A DNA stretch of 64,000 bases from Agathobacter sp. (GTDB taxonomy: Bacteria; Bacillota; Clostridia; Lachnospirales; Lachnospiraceae). This document shows positions 35,292 through 42,670 of this stretch, in pieces (position 1 is the first letter of the stretch; each line of letters begins with the position of its first letter). The notes beneath the pieces were generated by a model. It was not told where the DNA came from. It ran no database searches and saw only the letters and a program-made list of their open reading frames with translations. A program made the translations under genes and the position numbers. The stretch lies in the NCBI GenBank assembly GCA_022775045.1, contig JALFLB010000029.1:1-64000 (forward strand), read 5' to 3'.

Positions 35292-35633
35292 TTACTGATA
35301 CTGTTCCAGCTTGGCCTTCATCCGATCCATATCGTCCACAAATACCAGAATCTCTGCTACAACTTCATATAATTCCGGAGGAATCATATCACCGATCTGC
35401 AGCTTTGACAGCGTATCTGCCAGCTTATTGTCCTGATACGTAGGCACCTTGTTTTCTTTCGCAGTTTCAATAATTTTCTCTGCGACCCTGCCTTTTCCCG
35501 TAGCAAGAATTCTCGGAGCAGCCTCTCCCGGCTCGTAGGCAATAGCTACAGCCGTTTTATCCAGATTATTTTTTTCTTTTTGCAATTGTTCAAACTGAAA
35601 CGGTTTAAAATGATTGTCTGACATATCTGACAC
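35292..35633 (-). CDS. Stand-alone FlhB C-terminal-like protein (YlqH)
   Basis: The 113-residue protein consists of the cytoplasmic domain of FlhB/EscU export-switch proteins without the membrane part. Visible blocks are KTAVAIAYEPGEAAPRILATG, KGRVAEKIIETAKENKVPTYQD and LADTLSKLQIGDMIPPELYEVVAEILVFV. The NPTH autocleavage motif of true FlhB is absent; the position reads YEPGEAAPRI. In Bacillus subtilis YlqH has the same layout and position next to YlqG and rnhB, and Helicobacter FhlB can partly replace the FlhB C-terminus. No other flagellar gene is in the window. Confidence 0.8.
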   Translation of the reverse strand: MSDMSDNHFKPFQFEQLQKEKNNLDKTAVAIAYEPGEAAPRILATGKGRVAEKIIETAKENKVPTYQDNKLADTLSKLQIGDMIPPELYEVVAEILVFVDDMDRMKAKLEQYQ

Positions 35634-35636
35634 CTC

Positions 35637-37316
35637 TTATGCTCTCACGTCAAACGAGTAACGATGCAGCTGACCTGCAGATGGCTGATCCTTCTTCAGA
35701 AAGTCTTCCACAAAATTCACATTTTTCCCCTCATTTATTACCGAGATGCTACACTGATATCCTCTCTTTTTCAAACGCGCCTCCAACACAGGAATATTCT
35801 TTTCAATCAGTGCATAAGCCCCATCATCCTCAAGATAAAAATTTGTAGAAACTTCATTTACATGCAGACGAACAGACACATCCGTTGCCCCCAAATGATC
35901 CATATCCAGATGTAAAAATGCAGTCAAATCCTGCTCCTGCTGTGCCAGTGCCTGCTTATTGGTATAAACATAAAGCTGACCGCTGGCATTCTGCCCAGAC
36001 ATTTTCAGTGGAATCTGTACATAGGTATATATCTGGTTAATTTGATTCATGAATTCCACATTGTTCCGGATATCCGCAGACAACTGTGTGAGAGTTGTGT
36101 CCTCCTGTCCCGTTGTCTTCATTGCATTCTCGATGCGCTCCAGCTGTCCGGTCAGGCGCTCATACAATTTGTCAATCTTGTTGCCCTCACTGATCAGAGC
36201 CTCCGGTTTTACCATCCACTGCTGCTCCAGCGTATCCTTCACAAGACTTTTAAACTCCTTCGACGATAGAAGTTTTTCCAAATGCTCACGTTCCACTGGC
36301 AACGGATCATTCAGCACTTGTTCAAGATCTCGAAGCACCTCAACCGCACCGCTGTTTCCGGTATAATTTACTGTTTCTGTTCCCAACAGCTTGCCTATCA
36401 TCTGATTCAGATGATTCAATTGCTCCGGCTCAAGAATTGCTCCCAGGGTATGAGGCACAACCGGATTCTGCTGCGCAGAGTTCTCTATTTCCGATTCCAA
36501 AACCGGTTCCTGCGCGGTATCCTGCCCTGCCATTTTCTGTAATGCCGGTTCCTGTCCAACAGTTTCCTGCACAGCATCTTCCTGTACAATCGCGCCATTC
36601 GCTTCTGTCATCTGCTGCATTATCCCCTGCCAGTTTCCTTCAGGCACGTCAGCAAGCCCCTCCGTAATTGTGGAAAGAATCTGCCCCACCGGAACATTTT
36701 CCGATTGCATTGCAGTCGGCAGTTCATCAATAAAATGATCCAACTCCTCCGTTATAGCCTGCCGGTCATCCATATAATTTTCAAATTGTGCTGCATTCTC
36801 CGGGGTGATCGGGATACCAATCTTCTGCATCTGCACCAGCGTCTGCACATTGATATCCGCATTCGCATTCACTACACGGGCCATCTGTTGAATGCTCGCG
36901 CGATCAATCGGCATCTGTTCCTCCATCATCCGGTTTACCATGGAAAGATACTTGGACTCCCGGGGAATACCTGCTGCTGACAGCGCTTCCAGCAACGTAT
37001 AATTCACACCGTTTCCATCCACCACAAACGGACGGATTGCAATCTGTGCCCCGTCGTTTGATTTCACCTGAAAAAACATCGACTGTCCAACATTTAAGGA
37101 CACTTTTCCATCCATGCGGGCGGTCAGAAGCTGCCCGTTTGATAGTGCAAGCGTCACCTGTCCATTTTTCATGGAACTCACTGTTCCCTCAAAAATATTT
37201 CCCTTAGTCAGTGCACGAAGGGATGATACCAAATTCTCCACACCTTTTGTTCCGGCCAGCCGCTCTGTTCCCGTCGTAGTCTGGCTGTATTGTCCCATCA
37301 AGTCTGAAATCTGCAT
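35637..37316 (-). CDS. FliK-like hook-length-control domain protein (YlqG-like)
   Basis: The 559-residue protein has a glutamine-rich N-terminal half, including a Gln/Glu repeat tract (about residues 245-285, pattern VQETVGQEPALQKMAGQ). The C-terminal domain (about 425-520: PLKMSGQNASGQLYVYTNK ... ATDVSVRLHVNEVSTNFYLEDDGAYALIEKNIPVLEARLKKRGYQ) is FliK-type. It is paired with the FlhB-like protein four bases downstream, as YlqG-YlqH are in Bacillus. FliK and FlhB interact in the flagellar export switch, so the pair may interact too, but its role is unknown. Confidence 0.72.
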   Translation of the reverse strand: MQISDLMGQYSQTTTGTERLAGTKGVENLVSSLRALTKGNIFEGTVSSMKNGQVTLALSNGQLLTARMDGKVSLNVGQSMFFQVKSNDGAQIAIRPFVVDGNGVNYTLLEALSAAGIPRESKYLSMVNRMMEEQMPIDRASIQQMARVVNANADINVQTLVQMQKIGIPITPENAAQFENYMDDRQAITEELDHFIDELPTAMQSENVPVGQILSTITEGLADVPEGNWQGIMQQMTEANGAIVQEDAVQETVGQEPALQKMAGQDTAQEPVLESEIENSAQQNPVVPHTLGAILEPEQLNHLNQMIGKLLGTETVNYTGNSGAVEVLRDLEQVLNDPLPVEREHLEKLLSSKEFKSLVKDTLEQQWMVKPEALISEGNKIDKLYERLTGQLERIENAMKTTGQEDTTLTQLSADIRNNVEFMNQINQIYTYVQIPLKMSGQNASGQLYVYTNKQALAQQEQDLTAFLHLDMDHLGATDVSVRLHVNEVSTNFYLEDDGAYALIEKNIPVLEARLKKRGYQCSISVINEGKNVNFVEDFLKKDQPSAGQLHRYSFDVRA

Positions 37317-37336: not shown

Positions 37337-38098
37337 TCAAAAGAAATTTTTAATAAATGTGGTTCTATGGATGGGGGTTGGTCCATACTTTTTCAAAGCC
37401 GCAATATGCTGCGCACTTCCATAGCCTTTATTGCTTGCGAAATCATATTCCGGATAGAGTTCCTCATAGGCAACCATCAGCCTGTCCCTCGTCACCTTTG
37501 CAATAATAGATGCAGCTCCAATAGAAATGCTCTTAGCATCCCCCTTAATGATTGGCACCTGCGGAATATCGACCTGCGGGATTGTCACGGCATCATTCAG
37601 CAAAAGGTCCGGTTTCGGGTTCATATTTGCGATTGCCTCGCGCATCGCCTCATATGTCGCCTGAAGAATGTTAATCTCGTCAATCCGCTCCGGACCCGCC
37701 ATACCAATTCCCGTTGCCACGGCACGCTCCATAATCACATCATAAAGTTCTTCTCTCTTAGCCGCAGAAAGCTTCTTGGAATCATTGATATAGAGAATAT
37801 CACAATCCTTCGGCAAAATCACAGCACCCGCAACCACCGGTCCCGCAAGAGGACCTCGCCCCACTTCATCAATTCCACAGATATATGTATAATTATCGTA
37901 TTCTTTTTCATATTTCTTTAATGCCTCGGTACGTGCAAGCTCCTCCTGAAGCTTTTCATAGCGTTTACGGGCAGTCTCCACCAGCTTTTTCACACCCGCA
38001 CGCTCATCCTGTTCATAACAGGTAATAAAAGCAGGCAGCTCCCTTGCATCGGTGGCTGCCAGTTCTTCCTTTATCATACCAATTTTACTGCTTGTCAT
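37337..38098 (-). CDS. rnhB: Ribonuclease HII
   Basis: The 253-residue enzyme cleaves RNA in RNA-DNA hybrids and removes single ribonucleotides from DNA. The catalytic Asp-Glu pair is in CGIDEVGRGPLAGPVV (near residue 76), and the other acidic residues follow in NDSKKLS and LLLNDAVTIP. An N-terminal helical extension of about 70 residues precedes the catalytic domain, as is common in Firmicutes RnhB. It overlaps rbgA by 14 bases, so translation is coupled. Confidence 0.96.
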   Translation of the reverse strand: MTSSKIGMIKEELAATDARELPAFITCYEQDERAGVKKLVETARKRYEKLQEELARTEALKKYEKEYDNYTYICGIDEVGRGPLAGPVVAGAVILPKDCDILYINDSKKLSAAKREELYDVIMERAVATGIGMAGPERIDEINILQATYEAMREAIANMNPKPDLLLNDAVTIPQVDIPQVPIIKGDAKSISIGAASIIAKVTRDRLMVAYEELYPEYDFASNKGYGSAQHIAALKKYGPTPIHRTTFIKNFF

Positions 38099-38939
38099 TC
38101 TTCACACTCTCTAACGTAATTCTTCCCAGACGTCCACTTCGAAACTCATCAATTAACAGAGCTGCAGCCTTACTGTAATCCAATTCGCCGCCTTTGGAAA
38201 TGCACTTACGGTTCTCCGCAATCTCACACAAAATATCAGGAAGCTCACGGCTTTCATCCACTGCATAACGCTCTGCAAGGATTCCTGCATAACTCATTTT
38301 CAAAAAGCGGATCAACTCAATCGCAAGCTCATCGATATTGAGGATTTCATCCTTGATAGAACCAATCAATGCCAGACGAAGACCCACAGCCTGATCTTCG
38401 AACTTCGGCCAGAGAATCCCCGGTGTATCCAAAAGTTCTACTTCCTTACTGAGCCGGATCCATTGTTTTCCTTTCGTAACACCCGGTTTATTACCGGTCT
38501 TGGCACAAGCCTTTCCTGCATAGGAATTGATAAATGTGGACTTTCCCACATTGGGAATCCCGACTACCATCGCACGAACCGGACGATTCTTGATTCCTCG
38601 CTTTCTGTCTCTCTCGATCTTCTCCCTGCATGCTTCCATGATCTTATCGGTAATGGACTTCATCCCCACTTTTCTCCGTGCGTCAAGGCTCACCACATAA
38701 TAGCCTTTTCCACGAAAAAATGCACTCCACTCCTCCGTTGCCTTCGGATCTGCCAGATCAGCCTTATTCATCAGAATCAAACGATATTTATTTTTCCCAA
38801 GCTCATCAATATCCGGATTTCTGCTGCTTAACGGAATTCGTGCATCAACAAGCTCAATCACCAGATCAATGAGCTTAATATCTTCCTGCATCTGGCGCTT
38901 TGCCTTGGTCATATGACCTGGATACCATTGAAAATTCAT
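38085..38939 (-). CDS. rbgA: Ribosome biogenesis GTPase RbgA (YlqF)
   Basis: The 284-residue circularly permuted GTPase helps late 50S assembly. It begins with the typical FQWYPGHMTKAKRQM, carries G4 NKAD (near residue 58) before G1 GIPNVGKSTFIN (near residue 127), and G3 DTPG (near residue 175), which is the permuted order. The C-terminal domain contacts the ribosome. It stands between lepB and rnhB, as in Bacillus. Confidence 0.96.
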   Translation of the reverse strand: MNFQWYPGHMTKAKRQMQEDIKLIDLVIELVDARIPLSSRNPDIDELGKNKYRLILMNKADLADPKATEEWSAFFRGKGYYVVSLDARRKVGMKSITDKIMEACREKIERDRKRGIKNRPVRAMVVGIPNVGKSTFINSYAGKACAKTGNKPGVTKGKQWIRLSKEVELLDTPGILWPKFEDQAVGLRLALIGSIKDEILNIDELAIELIRFLKMSYAGILAERYAVDESRELPDILCEIAENRKCISKGGELDYSKAAALLIDEFRSGRLGRITLESVKNDKQ

Positions 38940-38973: not shown

Positions 38974-39585
38974 TCAGTGAATCAATCCCATATCGCCAAT
39001 ACCATCAAAATAAAACCATGCCTTCCCGATGATATATTCCTTTTTCACATTACCGATATTGGCAAGACGGCTGTCCTCACTGTGATTTCGATTGTCACCA
39101 AGAACAAAATACTCATCGGCTCCCAACACAATCTCATCAGCGGCAATCCCCGCATCCTCTATGGAGGATACCGAAATTGCCTCATTGTAAATTGCTCCAT
39201 TGACGTAGACCGCACCATCATTGATCCAGACCGTGTCTCCCGGTCCTGCAATCACACGCCGCACGTAATAGTGGGATTTTTCATTTCCATTCGGTAAAAA
39301 GACGATCACATCCCCCTGTTTGGGACTTGACACCATATAAATAAACCGATTCACCAAAATCTGTTCATCATTGGTCAGTGTCTTTGACATTGCATTTCCA
39401 ACCACACTGGTACGAAGTCCGAAAAAGCTTACCATTGTATAGGCAATCACGATCACAATAGTACATTCCACTGCCCATGAAAGAATCTCCTTAAAAAGCG
39501 GCATATTAAACTTTCTTCTTCGTCTGTTGAAATTAAGTCCGTTCCTTCTCTTCAACCTTACATCCCCTGTCTCTTGTCTTTGCAT
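38974..39585 (-). CDS. lepB: Signal peptidase I homolog lacking the catalytic dyad
   Basis: The 203-residue protein has one N-terminal membrane segment (about 33-55) and the S26 fold. Box B, normally GxSMxPTL with the catalytic Ser, reads VVGNAMSKTL: Ala65 replaces Ser and Lys68 replaces Pro. Box D, normally YVKRVIGxPGD with the catalytic Lys, reads YYVRRVIAGPGD: Arg109 replaces Lys. Box E GDNRNHSEDSR is intact. Both dyad residues are lost while the rest is well kept, which suggests a pseudoenzyme rather than decay. The gene sits between rplS and rbgA, the usual place of lepB. The basic N-terminus (RRRRKF) is normal. I am sure of the family and cautious about activity. Confidence 0.88.
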   Translation of the reverse strand: MQRQETGDVRLKRRNGLNFNRRRRKFNMPLFKEILSWAVECTIVIVIAYTMVSFFGLRTSVVGNAMSKTLTNDEQILVNRFIYMVSSPKQGDVIVFLPNGNEKSHYYVRRVIAGPGDTVWINDGAVYVNGAIYNEAISVSSIEDAGIAADEIVLGADEYFVLGDNRNHSEDSRLANIGNVKKEYIIGKAWFYFDGIGDMGLIH

Positions 39586-39661: not shown

Positions 39662-40015
39662 TTATTTTACTAACTCTTTTACCTTTGCTGCCTTACCAAC
39701 ACGGTCTCTTAAGTAGTAAAGCTTAGCGCGACGAACCTTACCCTTGCGGATAACCTCTACCTTCTCTACGTTCGGAGAATGTAATGGCCATGTCTTCTCA
39801 ACTCCAACACCATTAGAAAGCTTTCTGACAGTGAAGGTTGCACGGTTGCTTCCGCCCTGCTTCTTAATTACAGTTCCCTCGAAGACCTGAACACGCTCTC
39901 TGTTACCCTCTTTGATCTTACCGTAAACCTTAACGGTATCTCCAACAGAAAACTGTGGTACTTCAGCCTTTAACTGCTCTGTCTCAATGTTCTTAATAAT
40001 TTCACTTGCGTTCAT
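39662..40015 (-). CDS. rplS: 50S ribosomal protein L19
   Basis: The 117-residue protein has all marks of L19: [59 protein letters not shown] and [22 protein letters not shown]. It lies at the subunit interface of the 50S particle. AGGAGG precedes the ATG. It is preceded by an inserted propeller-protein gene rather than directly by trmD. Confidence 0.98.
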
Positions 40016-40131: not shown

Positions 40132-41187
40132 TTATGAAGTAAAATATGCTCCGATTTTTTTAATGATTTTTCCAGATAATTTTAACATCAGGACATCAAA
40201 ATCTGTTCCAGCTTTCATATCCATACGATAACGCTCACCAATGATAACAGATCCGTGAATACCACGAATGCCGTTTGTTACCTGCTTATTTACCATTGCA
40301 ATATTTCCTGTATTCAAGTCGATTTTCTGCAAACCTTCATCCGCAGAGACATAAAGATTATGATTATCAACACAAAAAGAAGAAATCCATCCCGAAGAAT
40401 TATAAAGAAGCTTCGTTTTTCCGGTGTTGTTATCCACTTTGTAGATATCGCATTGTATCGGATCGTCCGGATTCGATCTCTTATAATACATGTTACCCTT
40501 GTAAAAGAACACTCCCTCCAGACCGGATACGGTCTTGATCTTCCTCTTATTTGTGCCTTTCACATTACTGGTATAGACAGTTGTCTTGCCAGTCTCCCAA
40601 TCGCAGCTGCCAAAATAAAGAGTTTTCCCGTCTGTTCCATAAAGGGAAAGGCTTTTCCCCGAAACCAGTTTCTTCGTATTTGCCCCCTTCAGGTCCATGG
40701 AGTACAATCCCTTCGTTTCATTGTACTGATTATCATATTCATCAGAAATTCTCCTGGTTTTTGTACAATAAATCTTCCCATCCGCGATTGCAAAGTCATT
40801 CACTCTTCCGAGATTCTTGCAGCTGGTTCCATCCAGTTTAATTTTAAGCAGATGATTATCGGACGAATCAGAATCTCCGTAATAATCATAGATTGCATAG
40901 ATATATCTGCCATACACCGCCATCTCGTAAAAGCCATTGCCACCATCCTTCATCTTGAACACAAGCTTTTTGCCCGTTCCATCCTTCTTTATGGAATAAA
41001 TCTTCCTGGAAATTCCATAATAAATCCGGTTGTTATATTCAACTGTTCCGGATCCAAGAAACTGATTTTCCAAGGTATTCCCCAGCTTAATCGACTTTGC
41101 TTCAGTCTTAGCCGGATATATGCAAAGCAGCAGCACAAAAGCCATCAGCACTGCTGCCGCTTTTTTCCAGCAACTATTTTTCCTCAT
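40132..41187 (-). CDS. Secreted propeller-like protein (DUF5050-like)
   Basis: The 351-residue product has a signal peptide (KKAAAVLMAFVLLLCIYPAKTEAKS, about 31 residues, no lipobox) and repeated four-strand units: NNRIYYGIS, GRYIYAIYDYYGD, DGKIYCTKT, GKTLYFGSCDW, KGNMYYKRSNPDD, NHNLYVSADEG. Spacing of about 45 residues suggests a six- or seven-bladed propeller. GAGGAGG precedes the ATG. It interrupts the otherwise conserved trmD-rplS pair and has its own small terminator-like hairpin, so it looks like an insertion into the operon. A related lipoprotein lies at 5138-6121. Function unknown. Confidence 0.7.
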   Translation of the reverse strand: MRKNSCWKKAAAVLMAFVLLLCIYPAKTEAKSIKLGNTLENQFLGSGTVEYNNRIYYGISRKIYSIKKDGTGKKLVFKMKDGGNGFYEMAVYGRYIYAIYDYYGDSDSSDNHLLKIKLDGTSCKNLGRVNDFAIADGKIYCTKTRRISDEYDNQYNETKGLYSMDLKGANTKKLVSGKSLSLYGTDGKTLYFGSCDWETGKTTVYTSNVKGTNKRKIKTVSGLEGVFFYKGNMYYKRSNPDDPIQCDIYKVDNNTGKTKLLYNSSGWISSFCVDNHNLYVSADEGLQKIDLNTGNIAMVNKQVTNGIRGIHGSVIIGERYRMDMKAGTDFDVLMLKLSGKIIKKIGAYFTS

Positions 41188-41212: not shown

Positions 41213-42670
41213 TTAAACAGACTCCATCCAGTAAACAGGTGCCTTTGAAATACATAATCCGAGTTTTTCCTGCAGGGAAAGAGATGCTTTATTTTCCACC
41301 CGAATCTGTGCATAGGGAATTTCCCCCCGCTCAAGAGCCTCGTTGACCATTACCGTCTCCAATACCTGGGCAAGTTTTTTCCCACGGTGCTCTGGCAAAA
41401 TCTGCAACATTCCAATACTGCCCTCATCATGCTGACCGATAAATCCTGCCATACTCCCATCACAAAAGACACCTTTCATCTGCCCTTCTGCGATACGGTT
41501 CTGAAAATATTCTTTGGACAAATCGCCGTCATAATTGGACACAACCTGCGGAAGCAGCTCCATATCTAAGGGTTTGATCACATATCCACTTACCGTCTCC
41601 ATCGTATCCGGACGATACAGTCCCCGTACCGGAAGCTTTTCCTTTCTGGTACAAACAGCCTGATAGCAGGAAACACTCACCTGCAGAGAAAGCAGCTGCT
41701 CCACGTAGGGAATCATCTGTTCCTGATGCACAACAAGACAGATTCTGCCTCTCTTTTGCTCCTTAACCAGCATTTTTCCAACTTTCCACTCCTCCGGTTT
41801 CGCCGGCAAATCCATTACATTCTCCCGGGTATGAAAAAACACACCACTCTTTTGCTCTCGCAAAAGAAGTTCTTTTCCATCCCAGTATATAACCTCAGCC
41901 CGGCAACGATTGATACACTCGATCATATCAATATGAAGTAGTTTCTGCCTCATAAGAAAGTTTTTGCACTTTTCCAGTGTTTCATATCTCTGATACAGAT
42001 CAGGACGTCTTTCCTTTGTACGTTTCACTGCCTGACCTTTTCGCCAAATTCCAATCTCTTTCTGATTACCTGATAATAACACCGGAGGGACTGCCCTGTC
42101 ATGCCAGATTTCTGGTCTTGAATACTGCGGGTACTCCAACAGATTTCCATGAAAAGATTCTGTCTCTGCTGACTGTTCATTATTTAGCACTTCCGGCACA
42201 AGTCTTGCCACCGCATCCACAATCACCATGGCCGCAAGTTCTCCGCCCGTCAGCACATAATCGCCGATGGAAATATAATCGGTGACTACCTCCTCAAGAA
42301 CACGTTCATCAATTCCTTCATAATGTCCACACAAAATCAGCAGATCATCGCACTTTGCCAGTTCCTGTGCCTTTTTCTGTGTAAAGGGTGTCCCCTGTGG
42401 GGTCACATAAATAACTCTTCGAATTCCTGATACCGGAAGCCGGTCAAGAACACTCCTGCAGGCATCGTAGACCGGCTGCGCCTGCATCAGCATGCCGGCC
42501 CCACCACCATAAGGATAATCATCTACTTTTCCATGCTTGTCTGTCGTGAAATCTCGGATATTGACAGCCTCAATGCCAATCTTATTCTGTTGTACTGCCC
42601 GTCCGGTAATACTGGTCATAAGCCCCTGCATCACCATCTCCGGAAAAAGTGTCAGAATATGAAAATTCAT
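41213..42670 (-). CDS. trmD: TrmD tRNA (guanine37-N1)-methyltransferase fused to a GNAT domain
   Basis: Residues 1 to about 240 are a complete TrmD: LTLFPEMV, DDYPYGGGAGMLMQ, the knot region ILCGHYEGIDERV and YISIGDYVLTGGELAAMV, and the C-terminal RPEIWHDRAVPPVLLSGNQKEI. It methylates G37 of tRNAs reading CNN codons with S-adenosylmethionine. The frame runs on without a stop for another 245 residues, whose last third is a GNAT acetyltransferase (GVFCDGSMAGFIG, IGMLQILPEHRGKKLAQVLE, IRVENKASLSLQEKLGL). The acetyl-CoA loop reads RGKKLA instead of RxxGxG/A. The second substrate is unknown. TrmD alone is about 240 residues elsewhere. Confidence 0.9.
   Translation of the reverse strand: MNFHILTLFPEMVMQGLMTSITGRAVQQNKIGIEAVNIRDFTTDKHGKVDDYPYGGGAGMLMQAQPVYDACRSVLDRLPVSGIRRVIYVTPQGTPFTQKKAQELAKCDDLLILCGHYEGIDERVLEEVVTDYISIGDYVLTGGELAAMVIVDAVARLVPEVLNNEQSAETESFHGNLLEYPQYSRPEIWHDRAVPPVLLSGNQKEIGIWRKGQAVKRTKERRPDLYQRYETLEKCKNFLMRQKLLHIDMIECINRCRAEVIYWDGKELLLREQKSGVFFHTRENVMDLPAKPEEWKVGKMLVKEQKRGRICLVVHQEQMIPYVEQLLSLQVSVSCYQAVCTRKEKLPVRGLYRPDTMETVSGYVIKPLDMELLPQVVSNYDGDLSKEYFQNRIAEGQMKGVFCDGSMAGFIGQHDEGSIGMLQILPEHRGKKLAQVLETVMVNEALERGEIPYAQIRVENKASLSLQEKLGLCISKAPVYWMESV

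What the first reader, a model, noticed from the sequence alone, without database searches (positions are those of the whole stretch)
38974..39585. Signal peptidase I homolog with both catalytic residues replaced
The gene sits in the standard lepB position between rplS and rbgA and keeps the membrane anchor, the S26 fold and box E (GDNRNHSEDSR). The catalytic Ser of box B is Ala65 (GNAMSKTL) and the catalytic Lys of box D is Arg109 (YVRRVIAGPGD). Codons are unambiguous (GCA and CGG on the minus strand). Two independent losses in an otherwise intact frame suggest a conserved pseudoenzyme, perhaps a scaffold or regulator of export, with true signal peptidase activity elsewhere in the genome.
Basis: partly seen in the sequence, partly recalled or inferred. 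Interest (0 to 1): 0.72.

Follow-up and report, generated by a model that had tools for sequence, protein, structure and literature searches.

The report
Dead signal peptidase kept by evolution
In a family of gut bacteria, one of the enzymes that cuts the address tags off exported proteins has repeatedly lost its cutting residues yet is carefully preserved, which suggests that it does a second, unknown job in protein export.

Summary
The window gene between rplS and rbgA is a membrane-anchored S26 signal peptidase homologue with Ala65 for the catalytic Ser and Arg109 for the catalytic Lys. It is not a one-strain loss. Of 62 genomes of the genus (probably Roseburia), 60 have the gene: 30 A/R, 27 S/K, 3 S/R. 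In the A/R set all four Ala and all six Arg codons occur with no amino-acid change at either site, so the "dead" residues are themselves selected. The conversion recurs in the family: a second genus has 15 A/R and 1 T/R of 16 copies, and scattered genera show S/R, A/K, A/R or G/R. That is 16-17 changes on best trees, 7-10 on well-supported branches. Among copies examined, position 109 is only Lys or Arg. The paralogue after rbgA (139 of 141) and SPases at other loci (53 of 53) keep the dyad. Best reading: a conserved pseudo-signal-peptidase that still engages signal peptides, or the active peptidases, without cutting; that role is inferred, not shown. Inactive homologues (SpsA, SipA) are known; I found no description of recurrent conversion at this core locus.

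The parts
38974..39585 (-). lepB1: pseudo-signal-peptidase (S26 fold, Ala65/Arg109)
39421..39498 (-). single N-terminal membrane helix (residues 30-55) behind a basic N-terminus
   Evidence: hydropathy; AF2 helix 28-55
39391..39393 (-). codon 65 GCA (Ala) at the nucleophile Ser position of box B
   Evidence: Ala codons in 30 of 30 A/R orthologues of the genus
39259..39261 (-). codon 109 CGG (Arg) at the general-base Lys position of box D
   Evidence: Arg codons in 30 of 30 A/R orthologues of the genus
39067..39099 (-). box E GDNRNHSEDSR (residues 163-173), intact
39662..40015 (-). rplS (ribosomal protein L19), upstream neighbour
   Evidence: PF01245 E 8e-50
38085..38939 (-). rbgA-type GTPase, downstream neighbour (the name rbgA from position and recall)
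   Evidence: PF01926 E 1e-17
37337..38098 (-). rnhB; in many relatives an S/K lepB2 lies between rbgA and rnhB, absent here
   Evidence: PF01351 E 8.4e-40

Best explanation
lepB1 is a conserved pseudoenzyme derived from type I signal peptidase. SHOWN by sequence: the catalytic pair is replaced; the gene and the replaced residues are held by purifying selection across 30 species-level genomes of the genus; similar conversions happened repeatedly in the family at this locus; an intact S/K signal peptidase was found elsewhere in 32 of 33 of the A/R or S/R genomes of the genus. INFERRED: it keeps its membrane anchor and the Ala-X-Ala peptide groove and binds signal peptides (or pre-proteins) at the outer face of the membrane without cutting. 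Ala65 keeps the main-chain NH that holds the P1 carbonyl. Arg109, a fixed positive charge where Lys sat, would hold the P1 carbonyl or carboxylate. It would act as a holdase, shield or docking subunit that sets when or whether the active peptidases cut. Because loss recurs, the non-cutting role probably already existed in the S/K ancestor, and catalysis was the dispensable part.
For: Genus: 60 of 62 genomes carry the gene, 30 A/R, 27 S/K, 3 S/R. Codon changes in the A/R clade: 14 at codon 65 and 18 at codon 109, all synonymous; if changes were free the chance is about 2e-7 and 6e-9 (rough). dN/dS 0.03-0.08 in the nine of the ten closest A/R pairs with a finite dS, against 0.02-0.08 in S/K pairs. 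Rate relative to RbgA: 1.50 A/R genus, 1.11 S/K genus, 1.54 S/K elsewhere in the family, 0.86 A/R in genus g336, so no family-wide relaxation. Second genus g336: 15 A/R + 1 T/R of 16 copies (17 genomes). Changes between live and dead: 16 (FastTree, 311 rows) and 17 (IQ-TREE quick, 172 rows, a chosen subset); 10 and 7 after collapsing branches under 95; columns 65 and 109 left out of the trees. By position (distinct proteins): first position 64 of 212 not S/K (enriched by my choice of loci), second 1 of 141 not S/K plus 1 unresolved, other loci 0 of 53. 32 of 33 A/R or S/R genomes of the genus hold another S/K SPase; the exception is 58% complete. Pocket residues in the genus A/R clade: V61, G63, M66, L70 30 of 30, V108 28 V + 2 I, against the SpsB pocket list (PMC4704075 passages). 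AF2 pLDDT 89.8, pTM 0.79; top PDB hits SpsB, LepB, SipA.
Against: No binding, export or partner data exist for any of these proteins. In S. pyogenes SipA, dead-site mutations and one cleft mutation (V99R) left function intact (PMC4049620 passages), so a retained cleft need not be the working surface. In g336 the pocket itself changed (V61 to Cys 16 of 16, L70 to V/I/M, V108 to Met). Over all A/R pairs with dS under 2, median dN/dS is 0.14 against 0.098 for S/K (dS near saturation), and the genus A/R clade runs faster than its S/K sisters (1.50 against 1.11). A65 and R109 are 2 of 48 unchanged sites among 175, so they are not exceptional in being fixed. Some dead copies in other genera also have a weakened box E (L321, L342, L400), which looks like decay there. 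TM-scores to the SPase structures are modest (0.48-0.55 by query length).
Confidence: 0.6

Rival explanations
1. A non-catalytic structural subunit: the protein scaffolds or allosterically tunes an active SPase or the Sec exit, and does not bind signal peptides in its groove.
For: In SipA, cleft and dead-site mutations leave function intact (PMC4049620 passages). An S/K paralogue is encoded just beyond rbgA in many dead-lepB1 genomes outside the genus.
Against: Residues 65 and 109 at the head of the groove are fixed in the A/R clade, whereas the SipA paper says its dead-site residues are not conserved in homologues of other species. lepB2 is absent in 27 of 30 A/R genomes of the genus (2 keep it, 1 unresolved), so lepB2 cannot be an obligate partner.
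Confidence: 0.25
2. A redundant gene in decay: other SPases made lepB1 dispensable, and it persists by chance or by its operon position.
For: Repeated loss; higher rate and median dN/dS in the genus A/R clade than in its S/K sisters; weakened box E in a few genera.
Against: Open frames, low dN/dS in close pairs, no amino-acid change at 65 and 109 over 14 and 18 codon changes, Lys or Arg at 109 in 212 of 212 first-position proteins, and presence in 60 of 62 genomes.
Confidence: 0.1
3. It still cuts, using other residues or Arg as the base.
For: S/R forms keep the serine. In the related protease LexA a Lys-to-Arg form is recalled to work at high pH (recalled; searches did not list such a paper). 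In g336 a Cys at 61, in the groove, is 16 of 16, where the two S/K sister sequences have Asn.
Against: In the genus A/R clade positions 64 and 67 vary and the only Ser, Thr or Cys kept in 90% or more (59, 104, 169, 172) are also kept in the S/K copies, so no new nucleophile is apparent there.
Confidence: 0.05

Closest known systems
SpsA of Staphylococcus aureus (inactive homologue of SpsB)
   Same: Type I SPase homologue described as lacking two conserved catalytic residues, in a genome with an active SPase (PMC12445088 passages)
   Different: Here the gene sits in the rplS-rbgA locus, orthologues switch repeatedly between S/K and dead forms, and the usual replacements are Ala and Arg. No SpsA sequence was compared here.
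SipA of Streptococcus pyogenes pilus loci (PDB 4n31, 4k8w)
   Same: SPase fold, dead dyad (Asp48/Gly85), conserved groove, needed for pilus assembly with those residues dispensable; a homologue in S. suis and S. agalactiae appears to keep the dyad (PMC4049620 passages). Foldseek E 2.1e-6
   Different: SipA lies in pilus operons, and its dead-site residues are reported as not conserved between species. Here the immediate neighbours are not pilus genes and the A/R pair is fixed within the clade.
SpsB / LepB active type I signal peptidases
   Same: Fold, membrane anchor, box E, S1/S3 residues
   Different: Catalytic Ser and Lys replaced

Membership tests
Peptidase S26 / type I signal peptidase (homology) | S26 fold and sequence profile | tested here: met
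   PF10502 E 5.4e-35 and TIGR02227 120 bits; Foldseek to SpsB E 3e-8, prob 1.00, TM 0.48 by query length
Peptidase S26 / type I signal peptidase (homology) | N-terminal membrane anchor, extracytoplasmic domain | tested here: met
   hydropathy peak at residue 34, AF2 helix 28-55; topology inferred from the basic N-terminus
Active type I signal peptidase | nucleophilic Ser in box B | tested here: not met
   Ala65
Active type I signal peptidase | general-base Lys in box D | tested here: not met
   Arg109
Active type I signal peptidase | peptidase activity | not testable with these tools
   needs a bench assay
SipA (pilus SPase-like protein) | encoded in a pilus/sortase operon | tested here: not met
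   immediate neighbours are trmD, rplS, an rbgA-type GTPase and rnhB
SipA (pilus SPase-like protein) | dead dyad with SPase fold | tested here: met
SpsA | direct sequence kinship with staphylococcal SpsA | not tested
   no SpsA sequence was fetched; the protein nests among lepB1 copies of its own family in the tree

The most novel reading that the evidence does not exclude
lepB1 of Lachnospiraceae is a two-function protein whose main, older job is non-catalytic: a signal-peptide receptor or shield at the Sec exit. The family repeatedly discards catalysis and fixes an Ala/Arg groove head that turns a peptidase into a signal-peptide trap. This would be a general bacterial mechanism for timing signal-peptide removal.
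Probability: 0.3. Interest if true: 0.85.

Novelty: new variant of a known kind. Interest (0 to 1): 0.68.

Why it matters
Type I signal peptidase is treated as a housekeeping enzyme. NCBI's standard model names the window protein 'signal peptidase I' at far above its cut-off (TIGR02227), so dozens of related species are likely annotated with an enzyme that cannot work as named. A natural series of S/K, S/R, A/K and A/R orthologues at one locus makes the question of a non-catalytic role for a signal peptidase directly testable, and offers candidate non-cutting signal-peptide binders.

Tried and rejected
Sequencing or assembly artefact: rejected, because the pair recurs in 30 genomes of the genus and 15 of another. 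Loss enabled by the neighbouring lepB2: not supported; in the genus lepB2 is seen in 2 of 30 A/R, 7 of 27 S/K and 0 of 3 S/R genomes, with 1 A/R and 2 S/K unresolved, but in g336 in 15 of 16, the 16th showing only a fragment. A fixed order of loss: not supported, since both S/R (10 distinct proteins) and A/K (4) occur. General relaxation of the gene: not supported family-wide, although the genus A/R clade runs faster than its S/K sisters. A paper on this: of the searches I saw only listings (two returned nothing; several listed 8-10 of 11-29 hits). They showed SipA and SpsA papers but none on this locus in Lachnospiraceae; absence is limited to that open-access library and those terms. The VIA-align library was not available.

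Limits: P values are rough parsimony figures; the g336 figure for codon 65 does not apply, because one change there is not synonymous (Thr). The 311-row tree merged rows sharing their last 120 residues, which dropped the one T/R copy. The IQ-TREE run was a short search on a chosen subset (43 of 63 dead rows) without bootstrap, and warned of long rows L387, L343 and L321. Change counts include possible reversals. G273 (S/R) nests in the A/R clade, so it is either a reversal at 65 or a misplaced row. 'Other loci, 53 of 53' covers P-type SPases found by my profile in fetched stretches; the SipW-like type was not counted.

Full report
CHECK. The ORF 38974-39585 on the minus strand encodes 203 aa. 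It is an S26 signal peptidase homologue by Pfam (E 5.4e-35) and NCBIfam TIGR02227 (120 bits, cut-off 47). Aligned to S. aureus SpsB, the nucleophile Ser36 falls on Ala65 (codon GCA) and the base Lys77 on Arg109 (codon CGG). Box E and a single membrane helix are present. AlphaFold2 on a 64-row alignment gives pLDDT 89.8 and pTM 0.79. The best PDB matches are SpsB, LepB and the pilus protein SipA, all with probability 1.00 but modest TM-scores. The neighbours are L19, a ribosome-binding GTPase and RNase HII.

THE GENOME AND ITS GENUS. The window's genome (2.45 Mb, 90% complete) holds another type I SPase with an intact Ser/Lys pair on contig C17 and two weaker S26 matches on C29, of which I looked at one, SipW-like by eye. 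Of 62 genomes of the genus, 60 have the rplS-rbgA gene. Its state is A/R in 30, S/K in 27 and S/R in 3. The two without it are both 68% complete. The genus is probably Roseburia: a contig of one member (G254:C14, 353,865 bp) has the length of a record titled Roseburia sp.. The sizes of two closed genomes match R. hominis and R. intestinalis as I recall them. In 32 of the 33 A/R or S/R genomes another SPase with S/K was found; the exception is 58% complete.

SELECTION ON THE DEAD SITE. In the 30 A/R sequences codon 65 is GCA 11, GCC 8, GCG 7, GCT 4. Codon 109 uses all six Arg codons. Parsimony counts 14 and 18 codon changes with no amino-acid change at either site, while the average site of the protein changed 4.9 times; 48 of 175 sites, these two among them, did not change. 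Of the ten closest A/R pairs, nine have a finite dS, with dN/dS of 0.03-0.08; the closest S/K pairs give 0.02-0.08. Over all pairs with dS under 2 the medians are 0.14 (A/R, 56 pairs), 0.098 (S/K, 89) and 0.078 (g336, 48), with dS near saturation. Relative to RbgA, lepB1 evolves at 1.50 in the A/R clade, 1.11 in S/K of the genus, 1.54 in S/K of the rest of the family, and 0.86 in the second A/R genus. So there is mild acceleration inside the genus and none judged by the family. Residues matching the SpsB S1/S3 pockets (list from passages of PMC4704075) are unchanged or conservative in the A/R clade: V61, G63, M66, L70 30 of 30, T59 29 of 30, V108 28 V and 2 I. Box E G163, D164, N165, R166, S169, D171 and R173 are 30 of 30. 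In g336 box E is also fixed, but the pocket differs (Cys61, Met108, V/I/M at 70).

IT HAPPENED AGAIN AND AGAIN. The named GTDB collection gave 80 loci: 72 S/K, 7 A/R, 1 S/R. Three of the A/R loci formed a separate clade (Lachnoclostridium An196 and relatives) whose nearest relatives in that tree are S/K. Searching that genus (g336) gave 16 copies in 17 genomes: 15 A/R and 1 T/R. I then fetched 120 more best-hit genes, each from a different genome, out of the family lists: 106 S/K, 6 S/R, 4 A/K, 3 A/R, 1 G/R. A further S/R is in G057. The 29 family loci most like the window protein, and 8 loci of other families, were all S/K at their best hit. Context was taken for the 14 odd copies plus G057: all 15 have the gene just upstream of rbgA, and 13 of the 15 stretches show rplS on its other side; the other two stretches show no rplS. 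On trees built without columns 65 and 109, live-dead changes number 16 (FastTree, 311 lepB1 rows) and 17 (IQ-TREE quick, 172 lepB1 rows). After collapsing branches under 95 support, 10 and 7 remain forced. These counts cannot tell gain from loss. Close splits exist within genera: A/R L325 beside S/K L388 in g44, and S/R L382 beside S/K L319 in g53.

ONLY THIS POSITION, IN WHAT WAS EXAMINED. The locus is trmD-rplS-lepB1-rbgA-lepB2-rnhB in much of the family; the window lacks lepB2. Distinct proteins by position: first position 212 = 148 S/K, 48 A/R, 10 S/R, 4 A/K, 1 T/R, 1 G/R (enriched, since odd loci were fetched on purpose). Second position 141 = 139 S/K, 1 T/S from another family (L027), 1 unresolved. 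Other loci 53 of 53 S/K. Position 109 of lepB1 is Lys or Arg in all 212, and in the 311 rows of the tree; the 12-13 changes inferred there are all between these two. A basic residue is evidently needed even without catalysis.

WHAT IT PROBABLY DOES. Catalysis by the Ser-Lys dyad is impossible in the A/R form, and in the genus clade no substitute nucleophile is apparent: the Ser and Thr that are kept are kept in S/K copies too. In g336 a fixed Cys61 in the groove, Asn in the S/K sisters, leaves an odd chemistry thinkable there. Yet groove, anchor, box E and the two replaced residues are all kept in the genus clade. In SpsB the P1 carbonyl is held by the main-chain NH of Ser36, and the product carboxylate by Lys77 (PMC4704075 passages). 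Ala keeps the first contact, and Arg could keep or strengthen the second. The simplest inference is a signal-peptide binder that does not cut: a holdase, shield or docking subunit for the active SPases. The rival is a scaffold that does not use its groove, as SipA mutants suggest for that protein (PMC4049620 passages). Recurrence suggests that the non-cutting role predates the loss. None of this has been tested at the bench.

KNOWN OR NEW. Inactive SPase homologues are known: SpsA (PMC12445088 passages) and SipA (PMC4049620 passages). What differs here is the core rplS-rbgA locus, repeated conversion among orthologues, and an A/R signature fixed under selection. The listings of my literature searches showed nothing on it in the open-access library held.

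Noticed in passing
41213-42670 (-): TrmD is fused to a C-terminal GNAT acetyltransferase-like domain in one 485-aa ORF (Pfam PF01746 plus FR47/GNAT).
   Followed up: partly
40132-41187 (-): A 351-aa ORF with a signal-peptide-like start and no Pfam match lies between trmD and rplS.
   Followed up: no
L027:2985-3521: In a different family of the order, the second-position SPase (lepB2) has Thr and Ser in place of Ser and Lys, a different dead pair.
   Followed up: no
L242 and L270-L284 (genus g336), residue 61: A Cys four residues before the dead serine position is fixed in 16 of 16 copies of the second A/R genus, where two S/K sister sequences have Asn.
   Followed up: partly
L275 (G486): The only T/R copy, in genus g336: Thr65 with Arg109 kept.
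   Followed up: no
L108 (G273): An S/R copy nested inside the A/R clade of the genus, possibly a reversal at the serine position without return of the lysine.
   Followed up: partly
35292-35633 and 35637-37316 (-): An FlhB C-terminal-domain-like protein and a FliK-like hook-length protein sit downstream of rnhB.
   Followed up: no
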